Made by a program: the position numbers and the translations under genes. From the NCBI GenBank assembly GCA_951640195.1, contig OX621165.1, forward strand, positions 1,736,001 through 1,800,000: a DNA stretch of 64,000 bases, given 5' to 3'. Positions 2,024 through 62,308 of this stretch are shown piece by piece. The notes beneath the pieces are model-generated. The model was not told the DNA's origin. It worked only from the letters and a program-made list of their open reading frames with translations, and made no database searches. Every line of letters begins with the position of its first letter. Position 1 is the first letter of the stretch. Source of the DNA: Porpolomopsis calyptriformis (Eukaryota > Basidiomycota > Agaricomycetes > Agaricales > Hygrophoraceae).

Positions 2024-2050
2024 TTTTGGAGCCCACCGCGAGGGCCCACT
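2024..2050 (+). other. Candidate primer-binding site of B1
   Basis: Three bases after the 5' LTR the sequence reads TGGAGCCCACCGCGAGG, beginning with the TGG expected of a site complementary to a tRNA CCA end. The same sequence abuts the 5' LTR of B3 (about 61680-61699, reverse strand). I could not match it to a specific tRNA, so the primer identity is open. Confidence 0.4.
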
Positions 2051-2102
2051 ATTAAAATCTTAAAAGATTCCTTCGACTCAGTCCTTCAAACCGCCGTTCC
2101 CG

Positions 2103-3023
2103 ATGCACAATCGAGTCACTCGAAGCACAACCTTACGAGATAGATTCACTCGGAACATCGATCCGACCCAACCAACACTTCCTAGCTCTCAAATAAAACA
2201 GAATTCAACTTCGATCAACAATCCCGACTCCCCCAACGAACCCTCCTCTACCTTATCACTTTCCTCATTATCATTGATTTCTACAACGACTATGACGACC
2301 CCACCAAACCTAGTAATGCCCACTCGCAGTCACTCGACCGCCCCGAAGTTCAACCCCAAACAACCACGAGAACTTCAAAGATACTTCCAAGACCTCAGAG
2401 GTCTTTTCGCTAATTGTAGCATCACCGACGACGATGCTAAGAAGACCTACGCCTGCAAGTACGTCGACATCGATACCTCCGAACTCTGGGAATACCAAAC
2501 GGAGTTCCAAGCCGGACATACGTTCGACGAATTCGTCGCCGCCATCTATAAGCTATACCCAGGATCGGAAGACGATCGAAAGTGGTCCATCGCCGACATG
2601 GACAAGATAGTCGGAGAACAGCTTCGACTAGGGATTATGAACACAAACGAACTCGGAGCGTATTTCCGATCGTTCCTTGCGATTACTAAATTCCTGCAAT
2701 CGAAGAACAGAATCTCCGAAGCAGAACAAAGTCGCGCCTTCGTCCGAGGATTCCAACCCGAACTCTGGACTAGAATCGTCCGACGACTGGAAATCAAGTT
2801 CCCCGACCACTTCCCCGATGATCCTTACGGGGTAAATGATATCAACGAGGCGGCTCATTTCATTCTATATGGAACGTCTCCGAACACCTTTCTACCACGC
2901 GAAACGATGACTTCGACGACGACTACTACCCCTGCCACGAAACAAGAAGACCTCAGCGTCTTCATGGAAAAACTAATGACTACGTTGGTCAAAACCCTGG
3001 ACAATAGAGGTCCCCTGAAATGA
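2103..3023 (+). CDS. gag: B1 Gag, capsid part
   Basis: An open frame encodes a Gag capsid-type protein of the fungal Gypsy kind, forming the particle that packages the element RNA. Landmarks include a Ser/Thr-rich N-terminus, PRELQRYFQDL, ELWEYQTEF, AADMDK-like and FVRGFQPELW. The start is uncertain. ATG at 2103 exists only in B1 (B3 has ACG there), whereas ATG 2292 (MTTPPNLV) is present in both copies and is the better family start. The frame ends at a TGA (3021-3023) that B3 also has, and the same frame continues into the zinc knuckle beyond it. Confidence 0.72.
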   Translation: MHNRVTRSTTLRDRFTRNIDPTQPTLPSSQIKQNSTSINNPDSPNEPSSTLSLSSLSLISTTTMTTPPNLVMPTRSHSTAPKFNPKQPRELQRYFQDLRGLFANCSITDDDAKKTYACKYVDIDTSELWEYQTEFQAGHTFDEFVAAIYKLYPGSEDDRKWSIADMDKIVGEQLRLGIMNTNELGAYFRSFLAITKFLQSKNRISEAEQSRAFVRGFQPELWTRIVRRLEIKFPDHFPDDPYGVNDINEAAHFILYGTSPNTFLPRETMTSTTTTTPATKQEDLSVFMEKLMTTLVKTLDNRGPLK

Positions 3024-4409
3024 AACCCGCCCCCTCAAACACCACAAACTTCGGAACGACGACCCAACGCTCCTGACCCATTCGAGCCGAAAACCTGCGT
3101 TTTCTGTGGAAGTCCTGATCACTTCATCGGAAGCTGCCCGACCTGCTGCGAATATATCCAGAACGGTCGATGCAAGAAAAACTTCGAAGGAAGGATCATA
3201 CTCCCGAATGACAGGTTCGTCCCCCAGCAAATGCCGGGAAAAACCTTGAAAGAACGAATGGACGAATGGTACAAGCAAAACCCGACCCCGACTGCTGGAA
3301 TGATGTACGGAATTTCAGCAGGTATCCAACGCGATCCAGCGACCGAGACTTACCAACTATCAGCCGACGAACGGATCGCTGCTCTTGAAAAAGAGATTTT
3401 CGCGTTAAGGAGCAAGAAGACATTCGATGGAGTAGAGATAGTTCGGCCTCGACGACAAGAACCGGACAAAGAGAAAGCAACCGACAAACCATCGAGTGCT
3501 CCGATCGCGACCATCCCGACTCAACCCACTACGACGGAACATCCATTTGCGAAAGCAAAAGAGTCCAACTACGTACTGCCCCACATCTGGAACTTTGGCT
3601 CTCCGATGGCAAAAAGAGACAGAGACCCCTCGTACCACACTCAAGCGCCGATCCAAGACGCCAAAATCGCCTCCGACGTCTATAATTGTTCGATGAAAAC
3701 CCCTTGCGTCACGCTTTCCCCTGAAGAGTTGTTATCCCTCTCACCCGAAGTTCGATCGAAGGTTCGAGAGGCAGTAACCCCTAAATGAACTCAGCCGCCT
3801 AGTCGACCGATCGCGGTCAAAACCGTCGAAGTGGAAGCGATTCCAAACAACGCCCTGCCTTATTGCGATGACGACAATTGTTCCATTACCGTGCCTGACC
3901 CCTACGAATCGTATCTAAACACTCTCTCGTCCGACGAAACCCCTCACACCGTTACTGTTGCAAAGGAATCGCATGCCCTCCGATCGATCGTCATGTTGAT
4001 CGATCATAAAGAAACAATCGAATGCATCGTCAATCCTGGATCTCAGATAATCGCTATGTCCGAAGCCGTTTGTCACGACCTAGGACTGATCTACGACCCA
4101 ACTATCCAACTCAACATGCAATCGGCCAATGGCGAAATAGACCAATTGTTAGGTCTCGCAAGGAATGTCCCATGTCAGATCGGCAACATAACCCTCTACC
4201 TCCAGATCCACGTCATTCGCGCTCCCGCCTACGATATCCTACTCGGAAGACTGTTCGACGTTTTAGCTCAAAGCCTCATCAAGAACTTCGCCAACGAAAA
4301 CCAGACGATCACCATTTGCGATCCGAATAGCGGAAGAACAGTCACAATTCTGACGGTTCCACGAGGACTACCGAAGCACCATTCGGATTTTCGCTCATCG
4401 AGGATTTGA
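3024..4409 (+). pseudogene. B1 nucleocapsid zinc knuckle, linker and protease
   Basis: In frame with gag after its TGA. A CCHC knuckle (C-V-F-C-G-S-P-D-H-F-I-G-S-C) lies at about 3098-3140, followed by a basic linker and an aspartic protease at about 3980-4300. The catalytic motif is N-P-G-S in B1 and D-P-G-S in B3, so B1 protease has lost its Asp. A TGA at 3786-3788 is CGA in B3, where the region reads open from about 60492 to 59314. The frame ends at TGA 4407-4409, overlapping the pol frame in -1. Confidence 0.82.
4385..4391 (+). promoter_or_regulatory. Candidate -1 ribosomal frameshift heptamer GGATTTT (B1)
   Basis: The Gag-Pro frame reads S-D-F-R-S-S-R-I-stop, with G_GAT_TTT in the X_XXY_YYZ phase, 16 nt before its stop. 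Pol is open in the -1 frame from 4331 and has no ATG near its start. The heptamer, phase and stop are identical in B3. GGAUUUU is a slippery site known from plant dianthovirus polymerase expression. A downstream structure was not established. Confidence 0.6.
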
Positions 4410-6331
4410 TTCCTGATCAAGGAGAGATCGCGATAATTCTAGATTATGACCACGCTACGTCTATGCTATCTGTCAATTCCTGTGCGCCTCTATGCGCAAC
4501 AAATAAAGTTTCAACAGTTTCCCACGCTTATTTATCTGCTTGTGACCTCCCCGACCTTATCTCTAAATCTCGATCGACTAGCGATCGACATTCCGCTTCT
4601 GACCGTCTCGATCGATCGATGGAAATTGCAACCTTCCTCGCATCGAAAAAGAAATATAAACCTGTCTCGAAGAAAGTTCGCTCCGTAGTAGCTGAACTCC
4701 CCGACAAATTCCGAATCATTCGGAAAATCCTTGGCGATCCACTCGCGAATATGCCAACACTCAACCCGAACCCCCCCACGTTTACCCCGACCGAACGATA
4801 TACGATCGAACAGATGGAGCTTTTCGATAAAGCTCACCCCGGAGATTTCCTTTGGCCTCAAGAAAGGGCCCTCCTTCACGATTTCATGAGAAGACAAGAT
4901 CTCGCCTTCACCTGGAACGACTCCGAACGAGGACGTTTCAGATCCGACTTTTTCCCTCCCGTCGATCTCCCAGTCATACCACATACGCCCTGGGTACAAA
5001 AGAATATTCCGATTCCCCCAGGGATCTACCACGAAGTATGTAAAGTTATCCAGCGAAAAATCGACGCTGGTGTCTACAAACCCTCGAACTCCTCCTACCA
5101 ATCGCGATGGTTCACCGTTCTAAAGAAAGGAGGGAAGGAACTTAGAATCATTCACAGTCTCGAACCACTCAATCAAGTCACGATTCAACATTCGGGAGTA
5201 ACACCAATCCCCGAACACTTGGCCGAACAGTTCGGCGGTCGATCCTGCGGCGCTATGTTTGACCTTTATATCGGATATGACGAACGAGTGATCGCGCCTT
5301 CATCTCATGATTTAACCACGTTCCAGACACCCTATGGGGCTCATCGACTAGTTACCCTACCCATGGGATGGACCAACTCTGTGCCCGTTTTTCACGACGA
5401 CGTCACCTATATCCTCCAACCGGAGATTCCTGAGTTTACGATCCCCTATATCGACGATATCCCTGTGAAGGGTCCCGCAACTCGATACGTACTCCCCGAT
5501 GGATCCTATGAAACGATTCCCGAAAACGACGGAATTCGACGATTCGTATGGGAACACTTTGGGAATCTGAATCGGATAGTCCAGCGAATGAAATATTGCG
5601 GTGGAACGATGTCAGGCTATAAATCGTTCTTGTGCGCAGAAGAAACCACTGTTCTTGGACATCGATGTACTCACTTAGGACAACTACCCGACGAATCACG
5701 CGTATCTGCGATCCGAAATTGGGGCCCCTGTAAAGACCTCTCCGAAGTTCGAGCCTTCCTTGGCACTATTGGCGTCGTTCAGATATTCATTCGCAACTTC
5801 GCGCATCGAGTGAACCACCTAGTCAAGCTCACTAGGAAGGATATGCCCTTCGAATTCAGTCCCAACCAACTCGCCGCTCAAGAGGACTTGAAACAAGCTC
5901 TTCTAGAATCGCCCGCTCTACGAGTTCTCGATTATACTTCTGACGCTCCCGTCATACTCGCCGTCGACACATCACATATTGCGGTTGGCTTTCATCTCTG
6001 CCAATGCGATCCCGACGACCCGAAGAAACGGTACTATAATCGATTCGGTTTGATCACGTTGAACGATCGAGAAAGACGGTTCTCTCAGCCGAAACTCGAA
6101 ATCTACGGTCTGTATCAAGCCTTGCGATCGCTCCGACTCTACCTCATCGGCGTGCGGAACCTCATTATAGAAGTCGACGCCCACTATATCAAGGGAATGC
6201 TAGCGAACCCAGACATCGCGCCGCAAGCTAGTATTAACAGATGGATCGTAGCGATCCTAACGTTCCATTTTACCTTGGTACACGTCGCCGGTTTGAACCA
6301 CGGTCCCGACGGTCTCTCTCGACGCCCCTGA
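4406..6331 (+). CDS. pol: B1 reverse transcriptase-RNase H
   Basis: 641-codon open stretch copying element RNA to DNA. RT motifs are visible in order: F-D-L-Y-I-G-Y-D, the L-P-M-G-W-T-N segment, and the active site Y-I-D-D-I-P with both Asp intact. RNase H follows, with the A-V-D-T-S start, the L-E-I-Y-G-L-Y helix, E-V-D-A-H and D-G-L-S-R-R. It is entered by -1 frameshifting rather than from its own ATG. It ends at a TGA (6329-6331) that is CGA in B3, so the integrase was originally in the same polyprotein. RT itself looks undamaged. Confidence 0.88.
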   Translation: MIPDQGEIAIILDYDHATSMLSVNSCAPLCATNKVSTVSHAYLSACDLPDLISKSRSTSDRHSASDRLDRSMEIATFLASKKKYKPVSKKVRSVVAELPDKFRIIRKILGDPLANMPTLNPNPPTFTPTERYTIEQMELFDKAHPGDFLWPQERALLHDFMRRQDLAFTWNDSERGRFRSDFFPPVDLPVIPHTPWVQKNIPIPPGIYHEVCKVIQRKIDAGVYKPSNSSYQSRWFTVLKKGGKELRIIHSLEPLNQVTIQHSGVTPIPEHLAEQFGGRSCGAMFDLYIGYDERVIAPSSHDLTTFQTPYGAHRLVTLPMGWTNSVPVFHDDVTYILQPEIPEFTIPYIDDIPVKGPATRYVLPDGSYETIPENDGIRRFVWEHFGNLNRIVQRMKYCGGTMSGYKSFLCAEETTVLGHRCTHLGQLPDESRVSAIRNWGPCKDLSEVRAFLGTIGVVQIFIRNFAHRVNHLVKLTRKDMPFEFSPNQLAAQEDLKQALLESPALRVLDYTSDAPVILAVDTSHIAVGFHLCQCDPDDPKKRYYNRFGLITLNDRERRFSQPKLEIYGLYQALRSLRLYLIGVRNLIIEVDAHYIKGMLANPDIAPQASINRWIVAILTFHFTLVHVAGLNHGPDGLSRRP

Positions 6332-7930
6332 CAGCCCGATGACCAAGACGACGAAGAACTGATCAATAAAGACTTCGACGATTGGATCGATCGCATCCAC
6401 GGACTAATGCACCATATCAACGATTCGCCCGCGCCCCGAACGAAAACCCTCCGAATGCCCACCTCAGTTTACTCGCAGAGTAAACATTTCAGTGAGGAGG
6501 AGGAGGACCCTATCCACCAACGTACCGATTCTTACAACATCGTTCCGCGATCGGAAGCAGCTCAGCAAGACGATCGACGACTTCTCCTCATTCGAAAATG
6601 GCTTTCAGATCTCGAACGACCAAGCAACATGTCCGACAGCGACTACGCGAGTTTTATATGATACTGCGAAGAGTTCTTTATCGACAACCACCGACTATGG
6701 CAAAAGGATAGACAAGGAGCTCATAAATTAGTCATCGATCCGGATCGCCGATTAGCGATCATAATGGAACTTCACGATCGAACAGGCCACAAGGCTATCT
6801 TCGCTACCCGATCGATCGTTTCCGAACGCTTCTGGTGGCCCCATATGGCCCCCGATATAGTCTGGTTCGTTCGGACATGTCATACCTGTCAGGTTCGCCA
6901 AACCACGCAAGCCCTCATCCCTCCGACCGTCGCCACGCCAGCTCCCCTATTCGCCAAAATCTACGTCAACACTATGCATATGCCCCGATCCGGCCCATTT
7001 CGATATATCGTTCAAGGGTGATGCTCCCTCACCCACTATCCCGAATTTCGAATGCTTCATTCGGAAACAGCGAAATTGATTGGCGAATGGATCTTCGAGG
7101 ATATAATCTGTCGATGGGGCTCTCTTCGAGAAATCGTCACGGACAACGGAACAGCTTTCTTAGGAGCCGTAGATCATCTCGCCAAGCACTATCGAATCAA
7201 CCATATTCGCATTAGCAGATACAACTCTCGCGCGAACGGAATAGTCGAACGATCTCACTTCGACGTACGACAATCGCTATTCAAAGCTGTCGATGGCGAT
7301 CAGAAACAATGGTCGATCGGAGCCTACTCCGTATTCTGGGCTGAGCGCGTCACTACCCGAAAGCGACTGGGATGCTCACCCTACTTCGCCGTTACAGGGT
7401 CTCAGCCATTGCTTCCGTTAGATATTTCCGAAGCAACATATCTCCTTCCCGCTCCAGATTTGGTTCTCTCGACGACTGATCTAATATCGCAACGCGCAAT
7501 CGCCCTACAGAAACGAGACGCTGATTTAGACCAACTCCGATCGAAGGTTCTCGCCGCTTGTCTACGATCCGCCGTTCGATTCGAGAAGAAACACGAGAAG
7601 ACCATTCGCGACTACGATTTCAAGACTGGCGATCTTGTACTCATTCGGAACACAAAAATCGAGAAGTCTCTCAATCGGAAGATGCGTCCTCGATACCTAG
7701 GACCCCTAGTCGTGGTATCTTGAAACCTAGGGAAAGCTTATATCGTCGCGGAACTCGACGGATCCATCTTACATCGCCCAATCGCCGCGTTTAGAGTCAT
7801 CCCGTACTTCGCTCGAAGGTCGATCGCAATTCCCGAACGATTCCTCGACATATCGACTTCACAACTTAGAGAGATGGAACGTTCGCTAGCTAGCGAACCA
7901 CTTGATAGTGTTGTGATCGAGGACTTGTAA
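6332..7930 (+). pseudogene. pol: B1 integrase
   Basis: Same frame as RT, broken by TGA at about 6659, 7019 and 7722, each CGA in B3. An HHCC zinc domain is seen at 6772-6900 (H-D-R-T-G-H and C-H-T-C). The core has V-T-D-N-G-T and a Glu in N-G-I-V-E-R-S. The expected first catalytic Asp reads Asn (V-N-T-M-H-M-P), in B3 too. The C-terminal part has a GPL-type region (R-P-R-Y-L-G-P-L) and no chromodomain. The frame ends at TAA 7928-7930. Confidence 0.82.
6483..6502 (+). repeat. Internal copy of the polypurine-tract block (candidate central PPT)
   Basis: The 20-mer AACATTTCAGTGAGGAGGAG is repeated exactly at 9734-9753, where it forms the 3' polypurine tract just before the 3' LTR. The internal copy sits in the RNase H-integrase linker and encodes H-F-S-E-E-E. 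The same pair occurs in B3 (57221-57240 and 53349-53368). Confidence 0.6.
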
Positions 7931-8052
7931 CCTGCCGTAACACATCGCTACACACTTTTTTCATTCCAAAGTCTTTCTTTCATTTTTTTTAGACACAGAA
8001 ATACAAAATTTATAAGAAAAAGACTAAAGGCTACAAATTATTCAAGACAAGT

Positions 8053-9587
8053 CTACAGATTCTCTAAGACCATCTCCTCTTCCCTCTCTTCTAAACCCCT
8101 CAAAACCTCTTCGAGAACGACGATTCGCGCCTTTACGCGCGCTTTCTCCTCCGCGATCGCCGCCAAAACCTCTCGCGATTTCTCTTCATCAACCGCCTTC
8201 GCCTTCCCCTTCCCTTTCCGACCCGCGACCGGCCGCGTCGCTTCCTTCGAGCCTTCGCCCACCATCTCCTCCTCGAAAGGCGGCGTCTCGTCGATATAGA
8301 CTACTGGACCTATAGAAAGAAAAGATTAGAATAAAGAAAACAAAAAGAAAAAGGAAAAACTTACGAGAAACGGCCCTCGCTGACTTCCGAACCCCCTTCT
8401 TCGATTCCTCTGCCGTCGCCGACTTGTTCGCGCCCTTCGACTCCCCCTTGGGCCGCGGCTTGAACTTCTTGCCCAAGCGGGTTTCCCCCTTCTAATAGCA
8501 ACCGCGCTTATCCGTTACGCACTTGGCGCATAACGGATCCGCGGGGCCGATCTCACACTCCGCGCCCACCTTCTTGCAAAAATCACACTGCGAAATAAAG
8601 AAGTCCGTTAGTAAAAAAAAAAAAAAAACAAAAAAAGGGAGACTTACTTTGCCCTCGACCGGGCGCAAAGCCTCTTCTACCGCCTTTCGCTTGTGGTACT
8701 CCCGCATCGTGATCGCAGGGAGTGACCATCCCTTCACCGCCATCCTCTCCCAATGCGCCACCTTCGACCGCTTGACCAGTTCTTCTGCAGTCAGCGATTG
8801 CGCTGCTGCCGCCGATTCGTCTTCGTCAACCGAGGGCTAGTGCCCGTCCTCCGTCGTTTCCGTCGTCCCCCCCGTCGTGTCTGGCGTGTCTGCCGACACC
8901 TCCGCTGCCTTCGTCCCACTCTCGCCCGCCGCCTTTTCCGTTTCTCAACGGAATTCCTCCTCGTTGATCTTCCCGTCCATAAGCGACTGGAGGAGCCTCT
9001 CGTAGGCTTCCTCCATCCGCTTCCGATCCTCCGCGTCCCGTTCCTCCCATTCTCGTTCTTCTCACTCCTCTCGCTCCCGCTTCTCTCGTACCTCTCGTTC
9101 CTCATGCTCCGCTCGCTCTCGCTCTTCTTGCTCCTCTCGCTCCCGCTTCTCTCGTACCTCTCGCTCCGCCCTCTCCCTCGCCTCGCGTTCCTCTTCCGCC
9201 CTTCGCTCTCGCTCGACCCTCTCCGCCTCTGCTTTCTCCTCGGCCTCGCGACATACCACCTCTGCCAACCTTGGCATCAGCAGCTCCCCCGCCTATTCCA
9301 ACCACTCTCGCTCTTCGAAAGCGTCGAAGGTCTCGCGGGCCTCTTTTTGCCACGCGACGACCTCGTCGTCCGTTGATGTTTGCTTCAGGGCCTTTATGAC
9401 CCGATTATATGCAATCTAAAAGATGGATTAGCGGAAGAAAACGATTAGAAAAACAAAAACTCACCAGTAACTTGCAAAACTGTTGCCCCCAGATTTTGTA
9501 ATCTTCGGGTTCGGCAACCCCATCCGGAAGCGACCTCATTTGGTCGCAAATCTTCTGTTTTGCGATATTGATAATGTTCTGCGTCAT
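8053..9587 (-). pseudogene. Antisense spliced gene in B1: coiled-coil Zn2Cys6 protein
   Basis: Lies between pol and the 3' LTR, opposite to gag-pol. Four exons match B3: exon 1 is 9587-9465, intron 1 9464-9416 (GT...AG), and further introns lie at about 8650-8590 and 8364-8313. The protein has a short N-terminal domain (MTQNIIN), a long Glu/Arg-rich coiled coil, a six-cysteine cluster C-X2-C-X6-C-X8-C-X2-C-X6-C, and a C-terminal coiled coil ending M-V-L-E-N-L. Stops in B1 are at former CGA, TGG and CAG codons; for instance the Trp after the last cluster Cys is now TAG. The intron splice signals are intact. Confidence 0.8.
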
Positions 9588-9659
9588 TTTTAAACGGCTT
9601 GTCACGGTTTTCTTGGCATTGTGGTACGCGGTTTGAAGACGGTCGTGTCTAAAGATGAA

Positions 9660-9677
9660 TGTGACACAGATGTCACA
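9660..9677. promoter_or_regulatory. Conserved palindrome upstream of the antisense gene (B1)
   Basis: TGTGACA-CAGA-TGTCACA, perfect 7-bp arms around 4 bp. It lies about 70 bp upstream of the antisense ATG, next to a TTATAAAC/TTTATAAG TATA-like sequence. B3 has the same arms with a different spacer at 53425-53442, despite decay elsewhere. Probable binding site of a dimeric regulator; the regulator is unknown. Confidence 0.5.
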
Positions 9678-9754
9678 CTTATAAACGCGCCTCAGCAACT
9701 ACCGGCAAATCACGTGATTGACTGAGGACAGTCAACATTTCAGTGAGGAGGAGA

Positions 9755-10363
9755 TGATACGACCCCTCCGTCCCCTGAGCACCGTATATTCAACTATACG
9801 AATACTAGACGCCTACCAAGTCCTTCGAACACGAACTCGAACCCTCCGAATGCTCCCGATAGCTCCTGAACATCCCGAACGACTTCGAGAATCATCGAAC
9901 GCTCTGAACGCGATCGAAGCTTTCCGAACGCGAACGAAAGTTTGTATATCAAAGGGAAGACACTATTCAAAGGCATCAGTTCTCTTCTATTTCTCCCTTT
10001 TTCATTCGATTCCTTCATTCCTATTCACTACTTTCCCCTTAGATCATTAGAGAGGCTCCCCTTTTATCATATACACTCAAAGGGATCCTTGTACTAGAAG
10101 ATATATATACTGTATGTTGTAGCTAGTGATCCAACAAGTTAAATATTCGCTTCTCTCTCGCTCTCAAGTCTAGATCCTCTTTAGATCTTCTAAGACTTCC
10201 TCTTTCGACTTTCCGATCCTTCCGATTCCCCGATTGATCTCGTTCGCGAACGGTCGAAGACTCCCTTTCCACGATTATCGATCATAGGCTGAGTCGAGAC
10301 TCTTTATAGTCATCCTCGCACCTTGTTCTGTGTTCGGTTCTCATACACGAAGCAGACGTATCA
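9755..10363 (+). repeat. B1 3' LTR with preceding polypurine tract
   Basis: 609 bp, TGATACGACC...CGTATCA, preceded by the purine run GTGAGGAGGAGA (9743-9754) that primes plus-strand DNA. Flanked on the right by the target duplication CCGC, after which A1 protease sequence resumes. Confidence 0.93.
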
Positions 10364-20216: not shown

Positions 20217-20789
20217 TGATGTGATGTGGAGCTGTCTGAGCTCTGGGATCTGCCCCGAGAGATGATGGGAGGGACAATAGAAAGGAGCTATCAAAGAAAT
20301 CATGAAAATCGAAGAAATAGAAGAAATTGGAAAATCAGAGCACTCTCTAGAGTGCTAGAGGCGGTTGAAGAGGCTCAAACATGAAGGAATAGACATGGGA
20401 CGATGGAATCTATCTTCCTTCTCTATGATACAAACATATCTACAAGTAAATATATCTGTGAAAACAAAGATCCCATTGTATGCTATATAGTAAAGGGATG
20501 AGACTTCTGAACAAAGCCACTAGTGAAAGGGTTGATGGAAACGATGAAGATCTACACAATGGACATCTGGCTATCAGATGCATCCTTTGATATGAGCTGC
20601 GATCGTGAATCAAAGGATCGAAGAATTCGAAGAAATTCGAAGAAATTTGGAGAATTTGGAGATGAATCGCTAGATAGGAAGCTAAATCACGTAGTCGGGG
20701 ACATTGCAGCAGTATAGTAGACGTCTGGGGGATCACGTAGATATATAGAACATGTTCTCTGGAGCTCAGGGGACCAAGGGGTCATATTA
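20217..20789. mobile_element. Solo LTR of family B' (573 bp) in A1
   Basis: TGATGTGATGTGGAGC...CATATTA, flanked by 4-bp ATGA (20213-20216 and 20790-20793). It is the same length and clearly homologous to 53475-54047. Ends and 4-bp duplication relate it to family B, but the body differs from the 609-bp B LTR. The terminal TATCA has become TATTA by C-to-T. Confidence 0.83.
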
Positions 20790-52738: not shown

Positions 52739-53347
52739 TGATACGTCTGCTTCGTGTATGAGAACCAAACACAGAACAAGGTGCGAGGATGACTATAAAG
52801 AGTCTCGACTCAGCCTATGATCGATAATCGTGGAAAGGGAGTCTTCGACCATTCGCGAATGAGATCGATCGGGGAATCGGAAGGATCGGAAAGTCGAAAG
52901 AGGAAGTCTTAGAAGATCTAAAGAGGATCTAGACTCGAGAGTGAGAGAGAAGCGAATATCTGACTTGTTGGATCACTAGCTACAACATACAGTATATATA
53001 TCTTCTAGTACAAGGATCCCTTTGAGTGTATATGATAAAAGGGGAGCCTCTCTAATGATCTAAGGGGAAAGTAGTGAATAGGAATGAAGGAATTGAATGA
53101 AAAAGGGAGAAATAGAAGAGAACTGATGCCTTTGAATAGTGTCTTCCCTTTGATATACAAACTTTCATTCGCGTTTGGAAAGCTTCAATCGCGTTCGGAG
53201 CGTTTGATGATTCTCGAAGTCGTTCGGGACATTCGGGAGCTATCAGGAGCGTTCGGAGGGTTCGAGTTTGTGTTCGAAGGACTTGGTAGGCGTCTAGTAT
53301 TCGTATAGTTGAATATACGGTGCTCAGGGGATGGAGGGGTCGTATCA
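52739..53347 (-). repeat. B3 3' LTR
   Basis: 609 bp, TGATACGTCTGC...GGTCGTATCA on the + strand; polypurine tract adjoining at 53348-53359 (+ strand TCTCCTCCTCAC). Confidence 0.93.
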
Positions 53348-53424
53348 TCTCCTCCTCACTGAAATGTTGACTGTCCTCAGTCAATCACGTGATTTGCCGG
53401 TAGTTGCCGAGGCGCGTTTATAAG

Positions 53425-53442
53425 TGTGACAACTGTGTCACA
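53425..53442. promoter_or_regulatory. Conserved palindrome upstream of the antisense gene (B3)
   Basis: TGTGACA-ACTG-TGTCACA next to a TTTATAAG box (about 53417-53424). Same arms as in B1. A B' solo LTR now separates it from the antisense gene. Confidence 0.5.
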
Positions 53443-53474
53443 TTCATCTTTAGACACGACCGTCTTTGAACCGC

Positions 53475-54047
53475 TGATGCGATGTGGAGCTGTCTGAGCT
53501 CTGGGATCTGCCCCAAGAGATGGTGGGAGGCACAATAGAAAGGAGCTATCAAAGAAATCGTGCAAATTGAAGAAATAGAAGAAATCAGAAATTCGGAGCA
53601 CTCTCTAGAGTGCTAGAGGCGGTCGAAGAGGCTCAAACATGAAGGACTAGACGTGGGACGATAGGATCTATCTTCCTTCTCTATGATACAAACATATCTA
53701 CAAGTAAATATATCTGTGAAAACAAAGATCCCTTTATATGCTATATAGTAAAGGGATGAGACTTCTGAACGAAGCCACCAGTGAAAGGGTCAATGGGAAC
53801 GATGAGGATCTACACAATGGATGTCTGGCTATCAGATGCATCCTTTGATATGAGCTGCAATCACGAATAGAAGGATCAGAGAATTCGAAGAAATTCGCAG
53901 AAATCCGAAGCGTTCGGAGATAAATCACTGGACAGGAAGCCGAATCACGTAGTCGGGGATATCGTAGTAGTGTAGTAGACGTCTGGAGGATCACATAGAT
54001 ATGTGGAACATGTCCTCCGGACCTCAGGGGACCAAGGGGTCGTATCA
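53475..54047. mobile_element. Solo LTR of family B' (573 bp) in B3
   Basis: TGATGCGATG...GTCGTATCA, flanked by CCGC (53471-53474) and CTGC (54048-54051), a 4-bp duplicate with one C-to-T. B1 has the uninterrupted site. Inserted 44 bp upstream of the antisense gene ATG, between it and its presumed TATA. Confidence 0.85.
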
Positions 54048-54091
54048 CTGCGTACCACAACGCCAAGAAAACCGCGACAAGCCGTTTAAAA

Positions 54092-55670
54092 ATGACACAG
54101 AACATTATCAATATCACGAAACAGAAGATTTGCGACCAAATGAGGTCGCTTCCAGATGGGGTTGCCAAACCTGAAGATTACAAAATCTGGGGGCAACAGT
54201 TTTGCAAGTTACTGGTGAGTTTTTTGTTTTTCTAATCGTTTTCTTCCGCTAATCCATCTTTTAGATCGCATATAATCGGGTCGTAAAGGCCCTGAAGCAA
54301 ACATCAACGGACGACGAGGTCGTCGCGTGGCAAAAAGAGGCCCGTGAGACCTTCGACGCTTTCGAAGAGCGAGAGTGGTTGGAATGGGCGGGGGAGCTGC
54401 TGATGCCAAGGTTGGCAGAGGTGGTACATCGCGAGGCCAAGGAGAAAGCGGAGGCGGAGAGGGTCGAGCGAGAGCGAAGGGCGGAAGAGGAACGTGAGGC
54501 GAGGGAGAGGGCGGAGACGTCTGCGCGGGAGGAACGAGAGAGGGTCGAGCGTGAGGAGCGAGAGGAGCGAGAGCGAGCGGAGCGTGAGGAACGAGAGGAG
54601 CGCGAGCGGGTCGAGAGGGCGGAGCGAGAGGTATGAGAGAAGCGGGAGCGAGAGGAGCGAGAAGAACGAGAATGGGAGGAACGGGACGCGGAGGATCGGA
54701 AGTGGATGGAGGAAGCCTACGAGAGGCTCCTCCAGTCGCTTATGGACGGGAAGATCAACGAGGAGGAATTCCATCGAGAAACGGAAAAGGCGGTGGGCGA
54801 GAGTGGGACGAAGGCAGCGGAGGTGTCGGCAGACACGCCAGACACGACAGGGGGGATGACGGAAACGACGGAGGATGGGCACCAGCCCTCGGTTGACGAA
54901 GACAAATCGGCGGCAGCAGCGCAATCGCTGACTGCAGAAGAACTGGTCGAGCGGTCGAAGGCGGCGCATCGGGAGAGGATGGCGGCGAAGGGACGGTCGC
55001 TCCCTGCGATCACGACGTGGGAGTACCGCAAGTGAAAGGCGGTAGAAGAGGCTTTGCGCCCGGTCGAGGGCAAAGTAAGTCTCTTTCTTTTTCTTATTTT
55101 TTTTGTTTTTACTAACGGACTTCTTTATTTCGCAGTGTGATTTTTGCGAGAAGGTGGGCGCGGAGTGTGAGATTGGCCCCGCGGATCCGTTATGCGCCAA
55201 GTGCGTAACGGATAAGCACGGTTGCTATTGGAAGGGGGAAACCCGCTTGGGCAAGAAGTTCAAGCCGCGGCCCAAGGGGGAGTCGAAGGGCGCGAACAAG
55301 TCGGCGACGGCAGAGGAATCGAAGAAGGGGGTTCGGAAGTCGGCGAGGGCCGTTTCTCGTAAGTTTTTCCTTTTTCTTTTTGTTTTCTTTATTCTAATCT
55401 TTTCTTTCTATAGGTCCAGTAGTCTATATCGACAAGACGCCGCCTTTCGAGGAGGAGACGGTGGGCGAAGGCTCGAAGGAAACGACGCGGCCGGTCGCGG
55501 GTCAGAAAGGGAAGGGGAAGGGGAAGGCGGTCGATGAAGAGAAATCGCGAGAGGTTTTGGCGGCGATCGCGGAGGAGAAAGCACGCGTAAAGGTGCGAAT
55601 CGTCGTTCTCGAAGAGATTTTGAGGGGTTTAGAAGAGAGGGAAGAGGAGATGGTCTTAGAGAATCTGTAG
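54092..55670 (+). pseudogene. Antisense spliced gene in B3: coiled-coil Zn2Cys6 protein
   Basis: Four exons: 54092-54214, 54265-55074, 55136-55358, 55414-55670, with introns of 50, 61 and 55 bp, all GT-AG with CTAAT/CTAAC branches. They encode about 470 codons. Residues 1-41: short domain (W-G-Q-Q-F-C-K-L-L). About 60-250: long Glu/Arg coiled coil. From 312, at the start of exon 3: cysteines at 312, 315, 322, 331, 334 and 341, exactly the Zn2Cys6 spacing C-X2-C-X6-C-X8-C-X2-C-X6-C, followed by a basic tail (G-K-K-F-K-P-R-P-K). A second coiled coil ends the protein. Two TGA (about 54637 and 55033) are CGA in B1. Otherwise open. Likely DNA-binding, role unknown. Confidence 0.82.
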
Positions 55671-55792
55671 ACTTGTCTTGAATAATTTGTAGCCTTTAGT
55701 CTTTTTCTTATAAATTTTGTATTTCTGTGTCTAAAAAAAATGAAAGAAAGACTTTGGAATGAAAAAAGTGCGTAGCGATGTGTTACGGCAGG
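55671..55792. other. Convergent 3' region between antisense gene and B3 pol
   Basis: About 120 bp, AT-rich, between the stop of the antisense gene and the stop of pol on the other strand. The two transcripts converge here; T-rich stretches could serve as poly(A) signals. No ORF. Confidence 0.5.
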
Positions 55793-57240
55793 TTACAAGT
55801 CCTCGATCACAACGCTATCGAGTGGTTCGCTAGCTAGCGAACGTTCCATCTCTCTAAGTCGTGAAGTCGATATGTCGAGGAATCGTTCGGGAATTGCGAT
55901 CGACCTTCGAGCGAAGTATGGGATGACTCTAAACGCGGCGATTGGGCGATGTAAGACGGATCCGTCGAGTTCCGCGACGATATAAGCTTTCCCTAGGTTT
56001 CGAGATACCACGACTAGGGGTCCTAGGTATCGAGGACGCATCTTCCGATTGAGAGACTTCTTGATTTTTGTGTTCCGAATGAGTACAAGATCGCCAGTCT
56101 TGAAATCGTAGTCGCGAATGGTCTTCTCGTGTTTCTTCTCGAATCGAATGGCGGATCGTAGACGAGCGGCGAGAACCTTCGATCGGAGTTGGTCTAAATC
56201 AGCGTCTCGTTTCTGTAGGGCGATCGCGCGTTGTGATATTAGATTAGTCATCGAGAGAACCGAATCTGGAGCGGGAAGGAGATATGTTGTTTCAGAAATA
56301 TCTAACGGAAGCAATGGCTGAGACCCTGTAATGGCGAAGTAGGGTGAGCATCCCAGTCGCTTTCGGGTAGTGACGCGCTCAGCCCAGAATACGGAGTAGG
56401 CTCTGATCGACCATTGTTTCTGATCACCATCGACAGCTTTGAATAGCGATTGTCGTACGTCGAAGTGAGATCATTCGACTATTCCATTCGCGCGAGAGTT
56501 GTATCCGCTAATGTGAATATGGTTGATTCGATAGTGCTTGGCGAGGTGATCTACGGCTTCTAAGAAAGCTGTTCCATTGTCTGTGACGATTTCTCGAAGA
56601 GAGCCCCATCAACAGATTATATCCTCGAAGATCCATTCGCCAATCGATTTCGCTGTTTCCGAACGAAGCATTCGAAATTCGGGATAGTGGGTGAGGGAGC
56701 ATCGCCCTTGAACGATATATCGAAATGGGCTGGATCGGGGCATATGCATAGTGTTGATGTAGATTTTGGCGAATAGGGGAGCTGGCGTGGCGACGGTCGG
56801 AGGGACGAGGGCTTGCGTGGTTTGACGGACCTAACAGGTATGACACGTCCGAACGAACCAGACTATGTCGGGGGCCATATGAGGCCACCAGAAACGTTCG
56901 GAAACGATTGATCAGGTAGCGAAGATAGCCTTGTGACCTGTTCGATCGTGAAGTTCCGTCATGATCGCTAATCGGCGATCCAGATCGATGACTAATTTAT
57001 GAGCTCCTTGTCTATCCTTTCGCCATAGTCAGTGGTTGTCGATAAAGAACTCTTCACAGTATCGTATAAAACTCGCGTAGTTGCTGTTGGACATGTTGCT
57101 TGGTCATTCGAGATCTGAAAGCCATTTTCGAACAAGGAGAAGTCGTCGATCATCTTGCTGAGCCGCTTCCGATCGCGGAACGATTTTGTAGGAGTCGGTA
57201 CGGGGGTGGTTAGGATCCTCCTCCTCCTCACTGAAATGTT
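55793..57240 (-). pseudogene. pol: B3 integrase
   Basis: C-terminal part is fully open (56314-55793: R-P-R-Y-L-G-P-L, ending E-D-L). The core is broken by stops at about 56464, 56603, 56832, 56910 and 57105, four CGA-to-TGA and one CAG-to-TAG relative to B1. First catalytic Asp reads Asn (I-N-T-M-H-M-P). The RNase H junction contains the internal polypurine block 57221-57240. Confidence 0.82.
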
Positions 57241-59317
57241 TACTCTGCAAGTAAACTGAGGTGGGCATTCGGAGGGTTTTGGTTCGGGGCGCGGGCGAAT
57301 CGTTGATATGGTGCATCAGTCCGTGGACGCGATCGATCCAATCGTCGAAGTCTTTATCAGTCGGCTCTTCGTCGTCTTGGTCCTCGGGCTGTCGGGGGCA
57401 TCGAGAGAGACCATCGGGACCGTGGTTCGAACCGGCGACGTGTACCAAAGTAAAATGGAATGTGAGAATTGCTACGATCCATCTGTTAATACTAGCTTGA
57501 GGCGCGATGTCTGGGTTGGCTAGCATTCCTTTGATATATCGAGCGTCGACTTCTATTATGAGGTTCCGAATGCCGATGAGATAGAGTCGGAGCGATCGCA
57601 AGGCTCGATAGAGACCGTAGATTTCGAGTTTCGGCTGAGAGAACCTTCTTTCTCGATCGTTCAACGTGATCAAACCGAATCGATTATAGTACCATTTCTT
57701 CGGGTCGTCGGGATCGCATTGGCAGAGATGAAAGCCAACCGCGATATAGGAGGTGTCGACGGTGAGTATGACAGGGGCGTCAGAAGTATAATCGAGAACT
57801 CACAGAGCAGGCGATTCTAGAAGAGCTTGTTTCAAGTCCTCTTGAGCGGCGAGTTGATCGGGACCGAATTCGAAGGGCATATCCTTCCTAGTGAGCTTGA
57901 CTAGGTGGTTCACTCGATGCGCGAAGTTGCGAATGAATATCCGAACAACGCCAATAGTGCCAAGGAAGGCTCGAACTTCAGAGAGGTCTTTACAGGGACC
58001 CCAATTTCGGATCGCAGATACGCGTGATTCATTGGGTAGTCGTCCTAAGTGAGTACATCAATATCCAAGAACGGTGGTTTCTTCTGCGCACAAGAACGAT
58101 TTATAGCCTGACATCGTTCCACCGCAATATTTCATTCGCTGGACTATCCGATTCAGATTCCCGAAGTGTTCCCATACGAATCGTCGAATTCCGTCGTTTT
58201 CGGGAATCGTTTCATAGGATCCATCGGGGAGTATGTATCGAGTCACAGGACCCTTCACAGGGATATTGTCGATATAGGGGATCGTAAACTCAGGAATCTC
58301 CAGTTGGAGGATATAGGTGACGTCATCATGAAAAACAGGCACAGAGTTAGTCCATCCCATGGGTAGGGTAACTAGTCGATGAGCCCCATAGGGTGTTTGG
58401 AACGTGGTTAAATCGCGAGATGAAGGCGCGATCACTCATTTGTCATATCCGACGTACAGATCGAACATAGCGCCACAGGATCGACCGCCGAACTGTTCGG
58501 CCAAGTGTTCAGGGATTGGCGTCACTCCCGAATGTCAAATCGTTACTTGATTAAGTGGTTCGAGACTGTGAATGATTCTAAGTTCTTTTCCTCCTTTCTT
58601 TAGAACGGTGAACCATCGCGATCGGTAGGAGGAGTTCGAGGGTTCGTAGACACCAGCGTCGATTTTTCGCTGGATAACTTTACATACTTCGTGGTAGATC
58701 CCTGGGGGAATCAGAATATTCTTTTGTACCCAGGGCGTATGTGGTATGACTGGGAGATCGACGGGAGGGAAAAAGTCGGATCTGAAACGTCCTCATTCGG
58801 AGTCGTTCCAGGCGAAGGCGAGATCTTGCTTTCTCATGAAATCGTGAAGGAGAGCCCTTTCCTGAGGCCAAAGAAAATCTCCGGGGTGAGCTTTATCGAA
58901 AAGCTCCATCCGTTCGATCGTATATCGTTCGGTCGGGGTAAACGTGGGGGGGTTCGGGTCAAGTGTTGGCATATCCGTGAGTGGATCACCAAGGATTTTC
59001 CGAATGATTCGGAATTTGTCGGGGAGTTCAGCTACTACGGAGCGAACTTTCTTCAAGACAGGTTTATATTTCTTTTTTGATGCGAGGAAGGTTGCAATTT
59101 CCATCGATCGATTGAGACGGTCGGAAGCGGAATGTCGATCGCTAGTCGATCGAGATTTAGAGATAAGGTCGGGGAGGTCACAAGCGGATAAATAAGCGTG
59201 GGAAACTGTTGAAACTTTATTTGTTGCGCATAGAGGCGCACAGGAATTGACAGATAGCATAGACGTAGCGTGGTCGTAATCTAGAATTATCGCGATCTCT
59301 CCTTGATCAGGAATCAA
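57241..59317 (-). pseudogene. pol: B3 reverse transcriptase-RNase H
   Basis: RT active site reads Y-I-D-N-I-P (second Asp lost; B1 keeps Y-I-D-D). Stops at about 57795, 58045, 58434, 58533 and 58796 replace CGA (four) and CAA. RNase H E-V-D-A-R and D-G-L-S-R are visible. Enters by the same -1 overlap as B1. Confidence 0.85.
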
Positions 59318-60708
59318 ATCCTCGATGAGCGAAAATCCGAACGGTGCTTCAGTAGTCCTCGTGGAACCGTCGGAATTGTGACGGTTCTTCCGCTATTTGG
59401 ATCGCAAATAGTAATCGTCTGGTTTTCGTCGGCGAAGTTCTTGACGAGGCTTTGAGCTAAAACGTCGAACGGTCTTCCAAGCAGGATATCGTAGGCGGGA
59501 GCGCAAATGACGTGGATCTGGAGGTAGAGGGTTATGTCGCCGATCTGACATGGGACATTCCTCGCGAGACCTAACGATTGGTCTATTTCACCGTTGGCCG
59601 ATTGCATGTTGAGTTGGATAGTTGGGTCGTAGATCAGTCCTAGGTCGTGACAAACGGCTTCGGACATAGCGATTATCTGAGATCCGGGATCGACGATGCA
59701 TTCGATCGTTTCTTTATGATCAATCAACATGACGATCGATCGGAGGGCATGCGATTCCTTTGCGACAGTAACAGTGTGAGGGGTTTCGTCGGATGAGAGA
59801 GTGTTTAGATACGATTCGTAGGGGTCGGGCACGGTAATGGAACAATCGTCGTCATCGCAATAAGGCAGGGCGTCGTTCGGAATTGCTTCCACTTCGACGG
59901 TTTTGACCGCAATCGGTCGACTAGGCAGCTGAGTTCGTTTAGGGGTTACTGCCTCTCGAACCTTCGATCGAACTTTGGGTGAGAGGGATAACAACTCTTC
60001 GGGGGAAAGCGTGACACAAGGGGTTTTCATCAAACGATTATAGACGTCGGAGGCGATCTTGGCATCTTGGATCAGCGCTTGAGTGTGGTACGAGGGGTCT
60101 CTGTCTCTTTTCACCATCGGAGAGCCAAAGTTCTGGACGTGGGGCGGTACGTAGTTGGACTCTTTTGCTTTCGCGAACGGATGTTCCGTTGTAGCGGGTT
60201 GAGTCGGGATGGTCGCGATCGGAGCACTCGATGGTTTGTCAGTTGCTTTCTCTTTGTCCGGTTCTTGTCGTCGAGGCCGAACTATCTCTACTCCATCGAA
60301 CGTCTTCTTGCTCCTTAACGCGAAAATCTCTTTTTTGAGAGCAGCGATCCGTTCGTCGGCCGATAGTTGGTAAGTCTCAGTCGCTGGATCGCGTTGGATA
60401 CCTGCTGAAATTCTGTACATCATTCCAGCGGTCGGGGTTGGGTTTTGCTTGTACCATTCATCCATTCGTTCTTTCAAGGTTTTTCCCGGCATTTGCTGGG
60501 GGACGAACCTGTCATTCGGGAGTACGATCCTTCCTTCGAAGTTCTTCTTGCATCGACCGTTCTGGATATATTCGCGGTAGGTTGGGTAGCTTCCAATGAA
60601 GTGATCGGGACTTCCACAGAAAACGCAGGTTTTCGGCTCAAATGGGTCAGGAGCATTGGGTCGTCGTTCCGAAGTTTGTGGTGTTCGAGGGGGCGGGTTT
60701 CATTTCGG
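59314..60708 (-). pseudogene. B3 nucleocapsid zinc knuckle, linker and protease
   Basis: Open from 60492 to 59314, including an intact D-P-G-S protease triad. Upstream, the CCHC knuckle C-V-F-C-G-S-P-D-H-F-I-G-S-Y has lost its last Cys (TGC to TAC). The GGATTTT frameshift heptamer is at 59338-59332 in the same phase as B1. The TGA between capsid and knuckle (about 60700) is shared with B1. Confidence 0.83.
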
Positions 60709-61431
60709 GGGACCTCTATTGTCCAGGGTTTTGACCAACGTAGTCATTAGTTTTTCCATAAAGACGCTGAGGTCTTCTTGTTTCGTGGCAGGGGTAGTAG
60801 TCGTCGTCGAAGTCATCATTTCGCGTGGTAGAAAGGTGTTCGGAGATGTTCCATATAGAACGAAATGAGCTGCCTTGTTGATATCGTTTACCCCGTAAGG
60901 ATCGTCGGGGAAGTGGTCGGGGAACTTGATTTCCAGTCGTCGGACGATTCTAGTCCAGAGTTCGGGTTGGAATCCTCGGACGAAGGCGCGACTTTGTTCT
61001 GCTTCGGAGATTCTGTTCTTGGATCGCAGGAATTTAGTAATCGCAAGGAACGATCGGAAATACGCTCCAAGTTCGTTTGTGTTCATAATCCCTAGTCGAA
61101 GCTGTTCTCCAACTATCTTGTCCATGTCGGCGATGGACCACTTTCGATCGTCTTCCGATCCTGGGTATAGCTTATAGATGGCGGCGACGAATTCGTCGAA
61201 CGTATGTCCGGCTTGGAACTCCGTTTGGTATTCCCAGAGTTCAGAGGTATCAATGTCGACGTACTTGCAGGCATAGGTCTTCTTAGCATCGTTGTTGGTG
61301 ATGCTACAATTAGCGAAAAGACCTCTGAGGTCTTGGAAGTATCTTCGAAGTTCTCGTGGTTGTTCGGGGTTGAACTTCGGGGCAGTCGAGTGACCGCGAG
61401 CAGGCATTACTAGGTTTGGTGGGGTCGTCAT
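60700..61431 (-). CDS. gag: B3 Gag, capsid part
   Basis: 243-codon open frame from MTTPPNLVMP, lacking damage. Homologous to B1 2292-3023 at near identity. The upstream extension in B1 (MHNRVTRS) has ACG instead of ATG here, supporting the MTTPPN start. Ends at TGA as in B1. Confidence 0.78.
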   Translation of the reverse strand: MTTPPNLVMPARGHSTAPKFNPEQPRELRRYFQDLRGLFANCSITNNDAKKTYACKYVDIDTSELWEYQTEFQAGHTFDEFVAAIYKLYPGSEDDRKWSIADMDKIVGEQLRLGIMNTNELGAYFRSFLAITKFLRSKNRISEAEQSRAFVRGFQPELWTRIVRRLEIKFPDHFPDDPYGVNDINKAAHFVLYGTSPNTFLPREMMTSTTTTTPATKQEDLSVFMEKLMTTLVKTLDNRGPPK

Positions 61432-61699
61432 AGTCGTTGTAGAAATCGATGATAATGAGGAAAGTGATAAGGTAGAGGAGGGTTCGTCGGGGGAGTTGGG
61501 ATTGTTGATCGAAGTTGAATTCCGTTTTATTTGAGAGCTGGGAAGTGTTGGTTGGGTTGGATCGATGTTCCGAGTGAATCTATCTCGTAAGGTTGTGCTT
61601 CGAGTGACTCGATTGTGCGTCGGGAACGGCGGTTCGAAGGACTGAGTCGAAGGAATCTTTTAAGATTTTAATAGTGGGCCCTCGCGGTGGGCTCCAAAA

Positions 61700-62308
61700 T
61701 GATACGTCTGCTTCGTGTATGAGAACCGAACACAGAACAAGGTGCGAGGACGACTATAAAGAGTCTCGACTCAGCCTATGATCGATAATCGTGGAAAGGG
61801 AGTCTTCGACCGTTCGCGAACGAGATCGATCGGGGAATCGGAAGGATCGGAAAGTCGAAAGAGGAAGTCTTAGAAGATCTAAAGAGGATCTAGACTCGAG
61901 AGCGAGAGAGAAGCGAATATCTGACTTGTTGGATCACTAGCTACAACATACAGTATATATATCTTCTAGTACAAGGATCCCTTTGAGTGTATATGATAAA
62001 AGGGGAGCCTCTCTAATGATCTAAGGGGAAAGTAGTGAATAGGAATGAAGGAATCGAATGAAAAAGGGAGAAATAGAAGAGAACTGATGCCTTTGAATAG
62101 TGTCTTCCCTTTGATATACAAACTTTCATTCGCGTTCGGAAAGCTTCGATCGCGTTCGGAGCGTTCGATGATTCTCGAAGTCGTTTGGGATGTTCGGGAG
62201 CTATCGGGAGCGTTCGGAGGGTTCGAGTTCGTGTTCGAAGGACTTGGTAGGCGTCTAGTATTCGTATAGTTGAATATACGGTGCTCAGGGGACGGAGGGG
62301 TCGTATCA
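61700..62308 (-). repeat. B3 5' LTR
   Basis: 609 bp, pairs with 52739-53347. In sense followed by TTTTGGAGCCCACCG as in B1. Confidence 0.93.

What the first reader, a model, noticed from the sequence alone, without database searches (positions are those of the whole stretch)
54092..55670. A spliced antisense gene for a Zn2Cys6 coiled-coil protein inside an LTR retrotransposon
Both family B copies carry, opposite to gag-pol and between pol and the 3' LTR, a four-exon gene (B1: 9587-8053; B3: 54092-55670). The introns have clean GT-AG signals and survive in both copies. That is expected only if the gene is antisense, because sense introns would be spliced out of genomic RNA before reverse transcription. 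The six cysteines match the Zn2Cys6 binuclear cluster spacing used by fungal transcription factors. A retroelement-borne antisense DNA-binding protein could regulate its own LTR, silence the sense strand by antisense transcription, or mark sites. Antisense ORFs are known in some plant Gypsy elements; an intron-containing fungal Zn2Cys6 one is, to my knowledge, not a standard element component.
Basis: partly seen in the sequence, partly recalled or inferred. Interest (0 to 1): 0.9.

Follow-up and report, generated by a model that had tools for sequence, protein, structure and literature searches.

The report
Antisense zinc-cluster gene in fungal retrotransposon
A family of jumping genes in a fungus carries, on its opposite strand, an intron-containing gene for a zinc-cluster coiled-coil protein that selection has preserved, an arrangement that recalls antisense genes of some retroviruses and plant retrotransposons; what it does is not yet known.

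Summary
At 54092-55670 (second copy 9587-8053) a four-exon gene lies antisense to gag-pol, between pol and the 3' LTR of a Gypsy element. The genome has 81 places matching the zinc exon. In 32 aligned copies the ATG, splice sites, exon lengths and frame are largely preserved while introns vary in length; two are fully open. Outside CpG sites synonymous changes far exceed nonsynonymous ones, while CpG decay ignores the frame: a protein gene selected between transpositions and decaying after insertion. Of 87 pol matches in this clade 83 have the gene tail-to-tail; 0 of 40 in other Gypsy clades do. A sister clade has, in the same place and strand, a different gene of the same layout and cysteine spacing. 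One host-type gene shares the zinc exon, both flanking intron phases and the C-terminal coiled coil. A palindrome lies beside the gene's TATA-like box. DNA binding is unproven: the Pfam match is sub-threshold and GAL4-type basic residues are absent. An antisense gene in a fungal Gypsy element is already known (Boty brtn); my searches showed no intron-bearing zinc-cluster one.

The parts
52739..62308 (-). Ty3/Gypsy element B3 (gag-pol on the minus strand), 609-bp LTRs 52739-53347 and 61700-62308, termini TGATACG...CGTATCA, 4-bp target duplication CCAC
1415..10363 (+). Ty3/Gypsy element B1, LTRs 1415-2023 and 9755-10363, 4-bp target duplication CCGC
54092..54214 (+). antisense gene exon 1 (41 codons)
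54215..54264 (+). intron 1 (GT-AG, 50 nt)
54265..55074 (+). exon 2, Glu/Arg-rich stretch read as coiled coil; varies by in-frame indels between copies; contains both in-frame stops of this copy
55075..55135 (+). intron 2 (GT-AG, 61 nt), phase 0, directly before the first cysteine
55136..55358 (+). exon 3, zinc exon
55136..55225 (+). cysteine cluster C-x2-C-x6-C-x8-C-x2-C-x6-C
55359..55413 (+). intron 3 (GT-AG, 55 nt), phase 1
55414..55670 (+). exon 4, C-terminal stretch homologous to the coiled coil of a host-type gene, stop TAG
53417..53442 (+). TATA-like TTTATAA (53417-53423) and palindrome TGTGAC-N6-GTCACA (53425-53442) in the antisense gene's leader
53475..54047 (.). solo-LTR-like insertion separating the palindrome from the ATG in this copy
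9465..9587 (-). B1 copy, exon 1
8648..9415 (-). B1 copy, exon 2
8365..8587 (-). B1 copy, exon 3 (zinc exon)
8053..8309 (-). B1 copy, exon 4
9660..9677 (-). B1 copy, palindrome TGTGAC-N6-GTCACA in the leader
7022..7930 (+). B1 integrase core and C-terminal part of pol, interrupted in this copy; 122 bp separate its end from the end of the antisense gene (tail to tail)

Best explanation
The element carries an antisense accessory gene. Shown from sequence: an intron-bearing protein gene lies antisense between pol and the 3' LTR in one Gypsy clade, was under purifying selection at protein level while the clade spread, and decays after insertion. Supported by sequence: it has its own promoter-like leader outside the LTR, with a TATA-like box followed one base later by a palindrome whose arms did not vary in the 20 leaders aligned. 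Inferred: the spliced antisense mRNA is made, and the protein enters the nucleus, dimerises through its coiled coils and uses its zinc cluster and adjoining basic stretches to bind nucleic acid. Most likely function (inferred): a trans-acting regulator of the element family, like HBZ of HTLV-1 in arrangement, that controls its own promoter through the palindrome and shifts the balance of antisense against sense transcription, or the chromatin state, of element copies. Antisense orientation explains why the introns survive reverse transcription of the sense genomic RNA.
For: Frame, splice sites and exon lengths conserved in 32 copies. Non-CpG transitions: synonymous rate .116 against nonsynonymous .033, ratio .28, Fisher p=1e-31, while CpG transitions are frame-blind (.169 against .149); zinc cluster ratio .19. 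On the same 17 copies (reference plus 16) its ratio is .31 and that of reverse transcriptase .39. Distances track reverse transcriptase (Spearman .85, 0 of 2000 permutations). Tail-to-tail zinc exon at 83 of 87 pol matches of this clade, 0 of 40 in other clades. Palindrome arms invariant in 20 of 20 leaders while the spacer varies; 70 genome sites against 2 for the reversed control; 42 of the 50 listed sites lie 0.8-3.5 kb upstream of a zinc exon. Sister clade: same place, strand, layout and cysteine spacing, a related palindrome, ratio .44, p=3e-4.
Against: No RNA data. The zinc cluster is below the Pfam cut-off and lacks GAL4-type basic contact residues. The structure model was too poor to use (mean pLDDT 51.7). 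No palindrome half-site in the B1 3' LTR, so control of sense transcription through that site has no support; a host factor could equally bind it. Much of the upstream leader is as invariant as the arms, and 11 of 50 zinc exons on contigs C1-C7 have no exact palindrome upstream. A mirror frame on the other strand also shows constraint (.36 in B.52 in the sister clade, p=.0095), with 181 stops in 32 copies against 179 in the gene frame, final stops included; free intron lengths and the host homologue argue against it. With the decayed copy B1 as reference the ratio is .59 (reverse transcriptase .44). Homology between the genes of the two clades is weak (profile probability 15.6, E 1.7e-3; exon 1: 193 of 2000 shuffles).
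Confidence: 0.5

Rival explanations
1. Captured host antagonist: the gene (at least its 3' half) came from a host zinc-cluster gene and acts as a competitor or dominant-negative partner of the host protein, for instance one that silences the element. The reverse direction, a host gene domesticated from the element, is also possible.
For: A single host-type gene at C3:1.063 Mb shares 80 aligned columns at 41% identity (profile probability 98.6, E 1e-15), the phase-0 intron before and the phase-1 intron after the zinc exon, and the C-terminal coiled coil (0 of 2000 shuffles). No LTR, leader, gag or pol match better than E 0.085 in its 7.5 kb. It is closer to the B gene than the sister-clade gene is. 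CpG-biased decay suggests methylation as an opponent.
Against: Direction of transfer cannot be settled without other species; function of the host gene unknown; the N-terminal half does not match.
Confidence: 0.2
2. Structural or integration accessory protein (RNA chaperone, particle component, nuclear import or target-site tether) and no transcription regulator.
For: Constraint comparable to reverse transcriptase; basic stretches beside the zinc cluster (sequence); small zinc-binding modules often bind RNA (recalled).
Against: Expression from a separate antisense mRNA would unlink it from gag-pol packaging; operator-like palindrome at its promoter.
Confidence: 0.15
3. The antisense RNA itself is the functional product (dsRNA or interference with sense transcription); the protein is secondary.
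For: An antisense transcript would overlap the sense transcript; the same double role is proposed for plant elements (passage of PMC7264820).
Against: Protein-level selection in one frame with splicing preserved needs a protein.
Confidence: 0.1
4. Passenger: a host gene fragment or nested insertion without function for the element.
For: Both window copies are pseudogenes.
Against: Near-fixed spacing and presence over the clade, purifying selection, parallel gene in a sister clade.
Confidence: 0.03

Closest known systems
Antisense additional ORFs between pol and 3' LTR of plant Gypsy elements (Retand with TRP28, Grande gene23, RIRE2, PvRetro13)
   Same: Place and orientation, presence in most copies, nuclear location (Grande) or predicted DNA binding (TRP28) (passages of PMC7264820 and PMC11963269)
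   Different: No introns are mentioned in those two papers ('intron' 0 hits); TRP28 or SMC-like domains and no zinc cluster; plants
Boty brtn of Botrytis cinerea
   Same: Antisense gene in a fungal Gypsy element (PMC7264820 section 5; named in passages of PMC8365987 and PMC4227169)
   Different: Ascomycete; its sequence, domains and introns could not be seen (original paper not held), so homology is untested
HBZ of HTLV-1 and related antisense retroviral proteins
   Same: Antisense, spliced, at the 3' end, nuclear regulator of the bZIP kind (passages of PMC10186651)
   Different: HBZ is bZIP and expressed from the 3' LTR; here a zinc cluster and a leader outside the LTR; no homology claimed
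Fungal Zn2Cys6 (GAL4 class) proteins
   Same: Cysteine spacing; nearest solved chains by sequence are GAL4 and PUT3
   Different: Sub-threshold scores, no basic recognition residues, no fungal_trans domain among the Pfam matches, Glu/Arg stretch before the cluster
VANC anti-silencing proteins of VANDAL transposons
   Same: Element-coded proteins that bind the element's own noncoding DNA, as a possible working model (abstract of PMC10398659)
   Different: Plant elements; no sequence link tested

Membership tests
LTR-retrotransposon antisense additional ORF | antisense between pol and 3' LTR | tested here: met
LTR-retrotransposon antisense additional ORF | present in most copies of the family | tested here: met
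   83 of 87 pol matches of the clade; matches are pieces, some elements give two
LTR-retrotransposon antisense additional ORF | conservation like that of gag-pol proteins | tested here: met
   ratio .31 against .39 for reverse transcriptase, same 17 copies.59 against .44 with B1 as reference
LTR-retrotransposon antisense additional ORF | antisense transcript | not testable with these tools
   no RNA data
Zn2Cys6 (GAL4 class, PF00172) | six-cysteine spacing C-x2-C-x6-C-x5-12-C-x2-C-x6-9-C (recalled) | tested here: met
Zn2Cys6 (GAL4 class, PF00172) | Pfam score above the curated cut-off | tested here: not met
   at best 13.2 bits against 21
Zn2Cys6 (GAL4 class, PF00172) | basic residues between cysteines 2 and 3 (recalled) | tested here: not met
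   CDFCEKVGAEC and sister CDHCAKPLVLC
Zn2Cys6 (GAL4 class, PF00172) | zinc-cluster fold | tested here: inconclusive
   mean pLDDT 51.7
Zn2Cys6 (GAL4 class, PF00172) | binding to CGG-type sites | not testable with these tools
   no CGG...CCG pair (spacer 0-12) in the B1 3' LTR, one strand pattern scanned
Ty3/Gypsy element | LTRs, short target duplication, RT-RNaseH-integrase order | tested here: met
   RNase H and integrase by Pfam, RT by relatives some of which carry PF00078, since Pfam gave no RT match in B1
HBZ-like antisense retroviral gene | promoter in the 3' LTR and bZIP domain | tested here: not met
   TATA-like box and palindrome lie outside the LTR; no bZIP among the Pfam matches
Boty brtn | sequence homology | not tested
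   paper not held

The most novel reading that the evidence does not exclude
Gypsy elements of this fungus have more than once equipped themselves, in the same antisense slot, with an intron-containing zinc-cluster coiled-coil gene, in one case exchanged with a host gene, and use it as an anti-silencing or latency-type regulator that autoregulates through its own palindrome and competes with the host paralogue: a fungal counterpart of the antisense switches of deltaretroviruses.
Probability: 0.15. Interest if true: 0.88.

Novelty: new variant of a known kind. Interest (0 to 1): 0.63.

Why it matters
Accessory antisense genes of LTR retrotransposons are known but functionally unexplained. This one comes with strong selection evidence, a defined motif at its promoter, a recognisable host homologue with matching intron phases, and a parallel gene in a sister clade with the same cysteine spacing. 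That makes function testable: one protein, one candidate site, one host partner. It also shows how an intron-bearing gene can live in a retroelement, by lying antisense to the genomic RNA, and gives a natural contrast with a third clade whose accessory frames appear to run in sense.

Tried and rejected
Homologues outside this genome: two protein searches found none at E<=0.1, although the same database holds 926 pol relatives at E<=1e-5, up to 77% identical among the 120 listed, with Mycena chlorophos and Grifola frondosa among the names given. The negative is weak: the length filter excludes single-exon fragments, and unspliced gene calls would break the gene. Scans of viral contigs (with the antisense protein; with pol) and genome contigs (pol) gave no relative. 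Structure prediction of the zinc exon was too poor to search with. Rfam found nothing in the B3 element at gathering threshold. A nested DNA transposon as source of the gene: rejected, because spacing to pol is nearly fixed and the gene tracks pol phylogeny. A sense-strand gene in the mirror frame: rejected because intron-length indels would break it and the start, stop, splice sites and host homologue lie on the antisense strand, although its constraint (.36) and stop counts alone do not exclude it. Codon-position counts alone (132/140/267) were not relied on, since most changes are transitions, many at CpG; the within-context tests were used. With the decayed copy B1 as reference the ratio is weaker (.59 against .44 for reverse transcriptase). 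Rows dropped: 5 of 86 zinc-exon matches as second pieces of one place, and 1 of 128 pol matches (a 30-residue piece at 53% identity, between the bands). Seven of the 81 zinc-exon places have no pol partner, one of them the host-type gene. Eight of the 40 DNA-level copies were not fetched.

Full report
WHAT IS THERE. The window holds two copies of a Ty3/Gypsy element in opposite orientation: B1 at 1415-10363 and B3 at 52739-62308. LTRs are 609 bp with inverted ends TGATACG...CGTATCA, and 4-bp target duplications can be read at both (CCGC, CCAC; flanks). Pol pieces of B1 match RNase H and integrase zinc-binding families, and (below cut-off) the integrase core; the gag side has a sub-threshold DUF4100 match. 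Pfam gave no reverse-transcriptase match, but database relatives of that stretch do carry PF00078. Both window copies are dead: B3 has 2 in-frame stops and B1 5, and B3's leader is split by a 573-bp solo-LTR-like insertion.

IS IT MORE THAN CHANCE. The genome (33.5 Mb, 17 contigs, unnamed) gives 43 DNA matches, 40 copies after joining split matches, and 86 matches to the zinc exon at protein level, down to 41% identity, at 81 places. I aligned 32 of the 40 copies, 30 fetched and the two in the window. ATG 31/32; donors 29/32, 32/32, 27/32; acceptors 32/32 three times; final TAG 31/32. Exons 1, 3 and 4 keep their length in 31/32 each. Exon 2 varies from 720 to 903 nt and stays a multiple of three in 30/32. 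Introns vary freely, and none of the 32 lacks one. Two of 32 have a fully open frame with all splice sites; no claim is made that their elements are otherwise intact, and the reverse-transcriptase piece of the one used as reference has a stop.

SELECTION. Most differences are transitions, and many are CpG decay after insertion: in 17 LTR pairs 198 of 260 differences are in CpG context, more than half in 16 of 17 pairs (one pair has 11 of 25). I therefore compared changes within mutation context, with an open copy as reference. CpG transitions do not see the frame: synonymous .169, nonsynonymous .146, stop-making .195. Outside CpG, synonymous changes run at .116 and nonsynonymous at .033 (138 of 365 against 60 of 737 sites changed in at least three copies, Fisher p=1e-31). 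Other frames give ratios of 1.66-2.17, except the mirror frame of the other strand (.36), where third positions coincide. The most constrained parts are the N-terminus (.15) and the zinc cluster (.19). On the same 17 copies the gene's ratio is .31 and that of reverse transcriptase .39; with the decayed B1 as reference these are .59 and .44. The gene's distances follow those of reverse transcriptase (Spearman .85, 0 of 2000 permutations). The picture is a gene selected between transpositions and decaying afterwards, as expected of an element gene.

DISTRIBUTION. I intersected pol C-terminal matches (128 rows) with zinc-exon matches (81 places). With an antisense zinc exon tail-to-tail within 2.5 kb: 34 of 35 pol rows at 86% identity or more, 42 of 44 at 75-85%, 7 of 8 at 60-74%, and 0 of 40 below 50% (one row at 53% was in no band, and rows are pieces, so some elements count twice). 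Seen from the other side, 74 of 81 zinc-exon places have a pol partner. Most distances are 430-480 bp. So the gene is a near-fixed component of one Gypsy clade.

SISTER CLADES. The nearest other clade (pol 43-45% identical; two loci read first) has at the same place and strand a gene that ordinary searches did not link to B, but with the same layout: short exon 1, Glu/Arg-rich exon 2, a phase-0 intron directly before a Cys-starting zinc exon, the cluster CDHCAKPLVLCIKYPGGGACGLCARDHALC with spacing identical to B, and a charged C-terminal part. Among 11 copies aligned (of 49 match rows), exon 1 is 132 nt in 10 and exon 2 a multiple of three in 9. The constraint ratio is .44, p=3e-4 (mirror frame .52, p=.0095). 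Profile comparison of the two clusters is weak (probability 15.6, E 1.7e-3) and exon 1 is not significant (193 of 2000 shuffles), so common descent of the two genes is unproven. A third, young clade (pol about 36%) shows sense-strand frames in that space and no such cysteine pattern in the one stretch scanned.

HOST HOMOLOGUE. One gene at C3:1.063 Mb, with no LTR, leader, gag or pol match better than E 0.085 in 7.5 kb, matches the B gene over the basic stretch and zinc exon (41% identity, 80 columns, profile probability 98.6, E 1e-15). It has the same phase-0 intron before and phase-1 intron after the zinc exon, and a homologous C-terminal coiled coil (0 of 2000 shuffles). All 71 other matches to it in the genome at E<=0.1 fall on the element's zinc-exon places. 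Gene and introns have therefore passed between host and element, in a direction I cannot determine. Retention of the introns fits transfer on the strand that is not spliced in the genomic RNA.

PROMOTER. Between the 3' LTR and the ATG lie a TATA-like box and, one base on, TGTGAC-N6-GTCACA. In 20 aligned leaders of full-length copies the arms are invariant while the spacer takes several forms; much of the upstream leader is equally invariant. In the wider set, 39 of 50 zinc exons on contigs C1-C7 have an exact palindrome upstream. The genome has 70 such sites against 2 for the reversed control; of the 50 listed, 42 lie 0.8-3.5 kb upstream of a zinc exon. The sister clade has TGTGAC-AT-GTCAC at the matching place in 10 of 11 copies, 20 sites genome-wide against 0 for the control. 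The leaders of the two clades align better than most shuffles (12 of 2000 reach the score). The B1 3' LTR has no half-site. An operator for the gene's own product is the simplest reading; a host factor is not excluded.

ZINC CLUSTER. Spacing fits Zn2Cys6. PF00172 reaches 13.2 bits at best (cut-off 21) and was not listed for the B3 piece. The nearest solved chains are GAL4 for B (E .2) and PUT3 for the sister gene (E .15). The basic residues between cysteines 2 and 3 that read DNA in GAL4-type proteins (recalled) are absent. AlphaFold2 on the zinc exon was uninformative. I call it a Zn2Cys6-like cluster and do not file it in PF00172.

MECHANISM AND COMPARISON. The best-supported reading is an antisense accessory regulator with its own promoter, like HBZ in arrangement (passages of PMC10186651). 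Steps shown: gene, selection, clade-wide presence, palindrome in most copies. Steps inferred: transcription, splicing, dimerisation, nucleic-acid binding, regulation. [quoted passage not shown] passages of PMC11963269), and one is reported in a fungus (Boty brtn, cited in PMC7264820 section 5 and in passages of PMC8365987 and PMC4227169; original paper not held). My searches for a zinc-cluster or intron-bearing antisense retrotransposon gene in fungi covered an open-licence library, and I saw listings that were partly capped (20 of 44, 20 of 22, 15 of 88); none showed one. That makes this, as far as seen, a new variant of a known kind.

Noticed in passing
window 6483-6502 and 9734-9753 (B1); 57221-57240 and 53349-53368 (B3): The 20-nt stretch AACATTTCAGTGAGGAGGAG before the 3' LTR (polypurine tract) is repeated exactly inside pol in both copies, as a central polypurine tract would be.
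   Followed up: partly
window 53475-54047: Solo-LTR-like insertion (ends TGATGCG...CGTATCA) in the antisense leader of B3, related to 20217-20516.
   Followed up: no
L081 (C7:403000-406800) and L092-L094: A third Gypsy clade with several near-identical copies has one or two sense-strand frames between pol and its 3' LTR; codon-phase counts in 4 copies lean towards coding (77/67/100 and 47/29/61), though the three older copies have stops.
   Followed up: partly
L079, C3:1057600-1065099: Host-type zinc-cluster gene homologous to the element gene; its own function is unknown.
   Followed up: partly
B copies aligned here: Decay is strongly CpG-biased and frame-blind, which suggests cytosine methylation of these elements; the lost intron-3 donors lie in a CpG context as well.
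   Followed up: partly
C1:1015950, C1:1978714, C2:209458, C2:224708, C3:1883148, C4:242709, C5:1676442, C7:747724: Eight of the 50 listed palindromes are not 0.8-3.5 kb upstream of a detected zinc exon; some may be host sites or remnants.
   Followed up: no
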